A stretch of 64,000 nt of DNA from Saprospiraceae bacterium (GTDB taxonomy: Bacteria > Bacteroidota > Bacteroidia > Chitinophagales > Saprospiraceae), in assembly GCA_026993525.1 (NCBI GenBank), contig JALWSS010000086.1, forward strand, positions 1 to 64,000, given 5' to 3'. Positions 48,369 through 49,548 of the stretch are shown here, one piece after another (the stretch's first letter is position 1; each line of letters starts with the position of its first letter). A program made the translations under genes and the position numbers. The notes under the pieces are model-generated. The model did not search any database. It worked only from the letters and a program-made list of their open reading frames with translations, and was not told where the DNA came from.

Positions 48369-48474
48369 GATAGACTCAAAACGAAGTGGTTTGGGCGGCT
48401 CCGCCGCCCAAACTCCCCATCCACACTGGACGGGAGTGATGAATTATTCCCAAACCACTTCGAATCGGGTATAG
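48369..48474 (+). repeat. Dispersed structured repeat, copy 4 (106 bp)
   Basis: GATAGACTCAAAACGAAGTGGTTTGGGCGGCTCCGCCGCCCAAACTCCCCATCCACACTGGACGGGAGTGATGAATTATTCCCAAACCACTTCGAATCGGGTATAG. Confidence 0.95.
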
Positions 48475-48512
48475 ATTTCATGGCTGTAAAAATTTATTGC
48501 CGGCAGCCCGTT

Positions 48513-49277
48513 TCAGGCGCTCTCCAGCGCCAACATTTCGGAGGCGTAAAGGGCCGCACCGATAATGCCGGAATGATTGAACATGGCGGCAGTGGTGACA
48601 GGAGCTTCAATGGTAATGAAGGGTGCAAATTTTTCAAAGTTGTTGCTCACTCCTCCACCGAGAATGATGAGGTCGGGAGATGTGATCCTTTCTATCATGG
48701 CCAGGTACTCGTTGAAGCGGTGGCCAAAGGTGGCCCAGCTCATTTTATACTTCTTGCGTGCGGTGTTGGATACATAGTGCTCCGCAATCATGCCGTGCAG
48801 GTTGGCGTGGCCAAACTCGGTATTCCTTACCAGGTGTCCGTCGGTAAACAATGCTGAGCCCAGGCCGGTACCAATGGTAATCAGGATGACATTGCCTTTT
48901 ACGCCTTTTCCTTTGCCAAAGCGCATCTCGCTCAGCCCGGCAGCGTCAGCATCGTTGGTGACGATGAAGCGCCGGCCGGTTTTTTGAGACAAAAGCGCTT
49001 CAATGTCGGTTCCTTTCCAGGCAGGATGGATATTGGCAGCGCTGTAAGCAACGCCGTTTTTGATGACAGCCGGAAAACCGCACCCGATCAGTTCCCCGTC
49101 GTATCCAATTTCTTCGATCAGCTGCTCTACCACCTGTGCCACTGCCTCAGGTGTGGAGGGGTGCGGGGTTTTGATCTTTACCCTCTCCGTCAGCAATTGA
49201 CCGATCTCCGTATCTACTATTGCTCCCTTGATACCTGATCCTCCAATGTCTATTCCCAGGATATTCGATAAAGACAT
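48513..49277 (-). CDS. ppgK: Polyphosphate-glucose phosphotransferase (ROK family)
   Basis: ILGIDIGGSGIKGAIVDTE, ITIGTGLGSALFTDG, WATFGHRFNEYL. Confidence 0.88.
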   Translation of the reverse strand: MSLSNILGIDIGGSGIKGAIVDTEIGQLLTERVKIKTPHPSTPEAVAQVVEQLIEEIGYDGELIGCGFPAVIKNGVAYSAANIHPAWKGTDIEALLSQKTGRRFIVTNDADAAGLSEMRFGKGKGVKGNVILITIGTGLGSALFTDGHLVRNTEFGHANLHGMIAEHYVSNTARKKYKMSWATFGHRFNEYLAMIERITSPDLIILGGGVSNNFEKFAPFITIEAPVTTAAMFNHSGIIGAALYASEMLALESA

Positions 49278-49417
49278 AAGCTGTGTTCAATTGTGTGGGG
49301 CTCTTTAAAAACGGATCATCTCTAAAAAACCTCTCACCCATGTTGTTCATAAAACCCCATCACAGGTTTAAGGGCTCCAGAATGGGCACCCTGGCCTTCT
49401 GGTCAATTGAAAATGGG

Positions 49418-49548
49418 GATATACTCAAAACGAAGTGGTTTGGGCGGCGATCCCGTCCCGAAGGCTTTCGGGATTCGGGACCCAAACTCCCCATCCACAC
49501 TGGACGGGAGTGATGAATTATTCCCAAACCACTTCGGATCGGGGATAG
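49418..49548 (+). repeat. Dispersed structured repeat, copy 5 (131 bp)
   Basis: Same outer sequence as copy 4; internal hairpin replaced by TCCCGTCCCGAAggcTTTCGGGATTCGGGA. Confidence 0.95.

What the first reader, a model, noticed from the sequence alone, without database searches (positions are those of the whole stretch)
48369..49548. Dispersed ~105-131 bp structured palindromic repeat with interchangeable internal hairpin
Outer arms CGAAGTGGTTTGGG / CCCAAACCACTTCG are perfect 14-bp inverted repeats within longer imperfect ones; inside are a conserved hairpin (ACTCCCcaTCCAcacTGGAcGGGAGT) and a variable hairpin. The variable arm differs in sequence and length yet stays paired: TTTGGGCGGC-tcc-GCCGCCCAAA in copy 4 versus TCCCGTCCCGAAggcTTTCGGGATTCGGGA in copy 5. 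Copies or remnants occur at 6198, 10698, 13671, 48369, 49418 and 63918. The element has no ORF. The three-way-junction shape and loop exchange suggest a MITE/REP-like element or a structured RNA.
Basis: seen in the sequence. Interest (0 to 1): 0.75.

Follow-up and report, generated by a model that had tools for sequence, protein, structure and literature searches.

The report
IS630-derived MITE with swappable hairpin
A roughly 105-150 bp mobile DNA repeat, present in over a hundred copies in a Saprospiraceae bacterium, carries the ends of an IS630-type transposon and inserts at TA sites like the known RUP element of pneumococcus, but its inner hairpin tip has been swapped between copies many times.

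Summary
The repeat is real and genome-wide. Its left end has 132 matches (up to 3 mismatches) in the own genome and none for the reversed control. It is a MITE, a non-autonomous transposon relic, with ends TATACTCAAAACGAAGTGGTTTGGG... and ...CAAACCACTTCGRNTCGGGTATA. A same-genus genome holds a full-length, frameshifted IS630-family insertion sequence whose right end matches the repeat's left end at 25 of 26 bases. A complete genome from another genus of the family holds eight copies of an IS630 with the same kind of ends and a transposase that reads intact. In an insertion inside a lipid-kinase gene, only removing the element and keeping one TA restores the protein family, so the target duplication is TA. 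The element is the Bacteroidota counterpart of RUP in pneumococcus. It is not a REP/RAYT system, and I found no evidence that it is a structured RNA. The unusual part is the inner hairpin: long tips show no linkage to the right half of the element (32 state changes on the tree, 30.7 for shuffled labels). The tip palindrome TCCCGAA..TTCGGGA is itself a ~300-site repeat, abundant only in the three genus genomes that carry the MITE. The kind is known; the tip exchange looks new and its mechanism is unproven.

The parts
48371..48473 (+). Full-length MITE copy, short GC-rich tip (103 bp)
   Evidence: subfamily a1
48371..48395 (+). Left terminal inverted repeat, homologous to the IS630 right end (family consensus 25/26 with the G004 IS); first bases TAGA instead of TATA in this copy
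48449..48473 (+). Right terminal inverted repeat (complement TATACCCGATTCGAAGTGGTTTGGG), resembling the IS630 left end
48390..48412 (+). Apical hairpin TTTGGGCGGC-TCC-GCCGCCCAAA (short tip)
   Evidence: fold; 96% paired, 5 of 10 pairs with both-sided changes
48412..48437 (+). Inner hairpin ACTCCCcaTCCAcacTGGAcGGGAGT, conserved in subfamily a1 only
49420..49547 (+). Full-length MITE copy with long hairpin tip (128 bp)
49449..49480 (+). Long tip cassette GATCCCGTCCCGAAGGCTTTCGGGATTCGGGA; the same cassette is found on several different right halves in the genome
63919..64000 (-). Full-length MITE copy with the longest tip in the window; continues past the window to contig position 64059 (141 bp)
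10650..10765 (-). Degenerate copy
   Evidence: nhmmer E 2.5e-20
6199..6315 (-). Degenerate copy
   Evidence: nhmmer E 1.1e-18
13672..13786 (+). Degenerate copy
   Evidence: nhmmer E 4.1e-9

Best explanation
The repeat is a MITE derived from an IS630-family insertion sequence. Its left end is the right end of such an IS, including the last codons of the transposase, and its right end resembles the IS left end. An IS630 transposase supplied in trans is inferred to have moved it into TA sites, duplicating the TA. No intact source is seen in the own assembly, only fragments, so the family may now be stranded or served by something not assembled. The palindromic body forms a strong hairpin or cruciform, and its tip has repeatedly been replaced by a second, independent palindrome (TCCCGAA..TTCGGGA), most likely by template switching or repair synthesis from other hairpins when a polymerase stalls in the palindrome. 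Shown: the ends, the IS match, the TA duplication in one gene (with weaker support from a second site), the copy number and the lack of linkage between tip and right half. Inferred: mobilisation in trans and the tip-exchange mechanism.
For: 132 left ends against 0 control in the own genome; 46 in G004, 2 in G010, none in 11 other genomes of the genus. G004 carries a full-length IS from TATACTCATAGCGATTTGATTTGGG to the complement of TATACTCAAACCGAAGTGGTTTGGGC; its transposase fragment scores 117.8 bits against the IS630 model (cut-off 100) and hits DDE_3. Repeat left end against IS right end 25/26; best of 20,000 shuffles 17. G100 has eight IS630 copies with matching ends and different flanks. 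Removing the copy on contig 29 and keeping one TA gives one 310-aa lipid kinase with TIGR00147 and YegS_C across the junction; removing it with no TA or with TATA does not. A copy inside an IS630 remnant on contig 106 also aligns without a gap when one TA is kept. Tip class on the right-half tree: 32 changes, shuffled mean 30.7; short-loop class 2 against 13.5. Tip palindrome: 301, 84 and 86 sites in the three carriers, 0-4 in the other 11.
Against: No intact transposase was found in the own assembly, so mobilisation in trans is indirect. The repeat's right end matches IS left ends less well (18-21 of 26). The target duplication rests on one strong case and one weak case; in the weak case (contig 106) the TATA alternative aligns almost as long. 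No orthologous empty site in a related genome was compared. The inner ~50 bp shows no recognisable IS sequence, so the body may not be an internally deleted IS.
Confidence: 0.9

Rival explanations
1. REP-like palindromes spread by a RAYT (Y1 tyrosine) transposase.
For: Palindromic, intergenic and numerous; two Y1_Tnp hits in the own genome.
Against: Y1_Tnp hits occur in 13 of 14 genus genomes while the repeat occurs in 3; no repeat end within the fetched stretch around the Y1_Tnp loci of carriers. No GTAG tag. Symmetric ends with a TA duplication fit a DDE enzyme.
Confidence: 0.03
2. A structured regulatory RNA, or a transcribed terminator or mRNA stabiliser, kept for function.
For: Strong folding on both strands (z -4.7 to -6.4). 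Changes in the right arm of the outer stem are mostly C to T, which keep G-U pairs. Apical hairpin kept with both-sided changes.
Against: No Rfam family. No constant gene context: tandem 42, divergent 14, convergent 10, inside ORF 17 by crude calls; 27 against 15 in strand. Outer stem has no both-sided change. The inner hairpin is lost in other subfamilies. Ends match a transposon.
Confidence: 0.08
3. The tip differences arose independently by local expansion within each copy and not by exchange.
For: Tips hold tandem GATCCCG / CGGGATT units that could expand by slippage; loops occur in both orientations (TCC and GGA), a known result of hairpin template switching.
Against: Identical tips of about 32-60 nt sit on several different right halves, and 17 of 29 pairs with identical 54-nt right halves differ in tip class. 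The same palindrome occurs ~300 times, many outside the element.
Confidence: 0.15

Closest known systems
RUP (repeat unit of pneumococcus)
   Same: 107 bp, 108-110 copies, ends like IS630-Spn1, TA target, also lands in IS elements (PMC2229807, PMC3049150). The present element has about 105 bp, more than 100 copies, IS630 ends, a TA duplication and a copy inside an IS630 remnant.
   Different: Different sequence and phylum (Bacteroidota). RUP is described as simple; this one has a swappable hairpin tip of variable length.
Correia / NEMIS elements of Neisseria
   Same: About 107 and 155 bp size classes, TA at the ends, inverted repeats of about 25 bp, internal insert distinguishing the long class (PMC2229807).
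   Different: Correia long forms differ by one 50-bp internal sequence; here many tips of different length are shuffled over different bodies. Sequence unrelated.
BOX elements of pneumococcus
   Same: Modular: boxB can be absent or repeated inside a folded element (PMC3049150).
   Different: BOX is tied to ISSpn2, not IS630; the module here is a palindrome that also exists on its own.
REP / RAYT systems
   Same: Abundant palindromes, and the tip palindrome alone resembles a REP in size.
   Different: No RAYT link, no GTAG tag, symmetric long terminal repeats.

Membership tests
IS630-derived MITE (RUP-type) | Short (<200 bp) and without its own transposase ORF | tested here: met
   Lengths 88-169 bp for nearly all copies
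IS630-derived MITE (RUP-type) | Terminal inverted repeats matching those of an IS630-family element | tested here: met
   25/26 with the G004 IS right end; 19-23 with other IS630 ends
IS630-derived MITE (RUP-type) | Partner encodes an IS630-family transposase | tested here: met
   NF033545 117.8 bits > 100; PF13358
IS630-derived MITE (RUP-type) | Insertion at TA with TA duplication | tested here: met
   Lipid-kinase frame restored only with one TA; weaker second case. No empty orthologous site compared
IS630-derived MITE (RUP-type) | Mobilised in trans by the transposase | not testable with these tools
   Needs an excision or binding assay
REP / RAYT | Associated Y1 transposase gene flanked by the repeat | tested here: not met
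Known Rfam RNA | Match to a covariance model at gathering score | tested here: not met

The most novel reading that the evidence does not exclude
The tip palindrome TCCCGAA..TTCGGGA is itself a separately spreading element that invades the apex of other hairpins at a fixed position, so that one repeat family carries freely exchangeable hairpin cassettes, and its spread depends on the same host factors as the MITE because both occur in the same three genomes.
Probability: 0.25. Interest if true: 0.7.

Novelty: new variant of a known kind. Interest (0 to 1): 0.42.

Why it matters
It gives a concrete MITE/IS630 pair in the Bacteroidota comparable with RUP in pneumococcus, with an intact relative of the transposase at hand to test mobilisation. 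The free reassortment of hairpin tips between copies, and the sharing of the tip with an independent palindrome of ~300 sites, make the question of how bacterial palindromes are edited and exchanged directly testable in sequence data.

Tried and rejected
An IS701 transposase 330 bp from a G010 copy was judged incidental. RAYT link tested and dropped. Joined-flank ORF length alone did not discriminate TA from other duplications, because most copies are intergenic and adjacent ORFs fuse by chance; only the lipid-kinase case with a family match was kept, and the IS630 remnant case as weak support. A G100 hit to the short-tip pattern was not followed. No exact left end in viral contigs. Outer-stem covariation by RNAalifold: no both-sided pair.

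Full report
Check of the observation. The two main copies are at 48371-48473 and 49420-49547, with the arms and hairpins described. A third full copy starts at 63919 and runs past the window end, and three degenerate copies lie at 6199, 10650 and 13672 with nhmmer E-values from 2.5e-20 to 4.1e-9. In the whole genome (5.16 Mb, 230 contigs) the left end CTCAAAACGAAGTGGTTTGGGC has 132 matches with up to 3 mismatches, against 0 for the reversed control. About 100 copies with both ends were collected from the own genome and about 33 from a same-genus genome, G004 (one search lists 36, of which three are a copy read again from the other strand).

Anatomy. Nearly every copy starts with TATACTC and ends with G(A/G)GTATA-like sequence, with unrelated flanks outside. 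The left 29 bases are almost invariant (95-100% per position in 98 copies) while the right end varies by subfamily. The body falls into at least two right-half types, and type a into several subtypes. The apical hairpin is either short (GGCGGC-loop-GCCGCC) or long (GATCCCG...CGGGA).

Distribution. Of 60 relatives searched, only G004 (46 left ends) and G010 (2) carry the sequence; eleven other genomes of the genus do not. An exact 20-base scan of 85,488 species genomes found records that correspond to G004 (titled Saprospirales bacterium NAT133) and G010 (HyVt-532), and single contigs of four other assemblies, three of them Saprospiraceae and one labelled Gammaproteobacteria. Two of these single matches are elements with the same left end but different bodies. 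The window's genome therefore belongs to the same Saprospiraceae genus group (inference from kinship labels, contig lengths and record titles).

Source transposon. In G004, contig 3, a 1.1-kb element runs from TATACTCATAGCGATTTGATTTGGG to GCCCAAACCACTTCGGTTTGAGTATA. Its right end is the repeat's left end with one mismatch in 26. It encodes a frameshifted transposase; the C-terminal piece hits DDE_3 and exceeds the NCBIfam cut-off for IS630. The stop codon of the transposase lies in the terminal repeat, so the repeat's left end is literally the end of the transposase gene. The own genome has only fragments: an N-terminal piece with the IS left end on contig 230 and a C-terminal piece on contig 106. 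A complete genome of another genus in the family, G100, has eight copies with ends TATACCCG...AAGTGGTTTGGG and different flanks; the one examined (L205) has an uninterrupted 351-aa transposase about 70% identical to the G004 piece. One of the eight is interrupted.

Target duplication. On contig 29 a copy sits inside a gene. With the element removed and one TA kept, a 310-aa frame reads as a YegS/BmrU-type lipid kinase (TIGR00147 140 bits, cut-off 118.65) with the YegS_C domain colinear across the junction; removal with no TA or with TATA breaks the frame. On contig 106 a copy sits inside an IS630 remnant, and keeping one TA gives an ungapped match across the junction, though the TATA version aligns almost as far. 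Two further copies lie in one AbiEii-like gene on contig 131. They were included in two batch scripts of joined flanks before the gene was recognised; after that they were excluded and not read or used.

Structure. Single copies fold strongly on both strands. Over 60 copies of 103-104 bp from both genomes the apical hairpin keeps 96% of its pairs, with both-sided changes at 5 of 10 pairs; the inner hairpin only 60%; the outer stem has no both-sided change. These are few events among related copies. They support maintenance of the palindrome tip but not an RNA function.

Tip exchange. A tree of the right 54 bases of 97 own-genome copies separates types a and b with 2 changes (shuffled mean 16.4), so the tree carries signal. 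On it the class of tip, short or long, changes 32 times against a shuffled mean of 30.7, i.e. no detectable linkage. Of 29 pairs with identical right halves, 17 have different tip classes. Long-tip apex sequence is also unlinked (22 against 20.6), but the loop-length class of short tips is strongly linked (2 against 13.5). So the left and right halves do not reassort generally; the long tip has been gained or lost repeatedly, often as identical sequence. The palindrome TCCCGAAN(1-6)TTCGGGA has 301 sites in the own genome, 84 in G004, 86 in G010 and 0-4 in the other 11 genomes. In the own-genome sequence fetched, 19 of 47 distinct sites lay outside the element, in unrelated intergenic contexts; that sample is enriched for the element. 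The three carriers may be close kin, so this co-occurrence is not independent evidence.

Mechanism. Transposition by an IS630-type enzyme in trans, with TA duplication, is the best reading of the spread (shown: ends, partner, duplication; inferred: the enzyme acting on this element). For the tips, template switching or repair from other hairpins during replication of the palindrome fits the fixed junctions, the inverted loops (TCC and GGA; CCGGACTTGCTCCGG and CCGGAGCAAGTCCGG) and the fold-back copies on contig 15 and in G010, but this is inference.

Comparison. RUP of pneumococcus is 107 bp, about 108 copies, with IS630-Spn1 ends at TA sites and insertions in IS elements (PMC2229807; PMC3049150). 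The present element meets each of the features that could be tested. Correia elements share the size classes and TA ends, and BOX elements share modularity. No description of this family was found in the papers searched.

Noticed in passing
G000 genome-wide, e.g. L287:1501, L287:1710, L298:1501, L300:1501: The palindrome TCCCGAA..TTCGGGA is an abundant repeat of its own (301 sites), also at the tips of other intergenic repeats such as GCTGGCGCC[tip]GTCCGGTGCC and in CCTCTC-rich stretches.
   Followed up: partly
L008 (contig 131), copies at 1100 and 1502: Two copies of the repeat lie in what reads as one AbiEii-like (toxin-antitoxin) gene; not pursued further.
   Followed up: no
L133:1501-1562; L094 from 2406; L095 3064-3167: Fold-back copies in which the left end is followed by its own inverted copy, suggesting hairpin template switching; G010 and CALLVY010000670 (L274) share a related longer variant.
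   Followed up: partly
L248 (G100): One G100 IS630 copy has its transposase split by about 2.6 kb of other DNA.
   Followed up: no
L285 (RFGN01000751): A contig labelled Gammaproteobacteria carries a copy with a long tip; possibly a misbinned contig.
   Followed up: no
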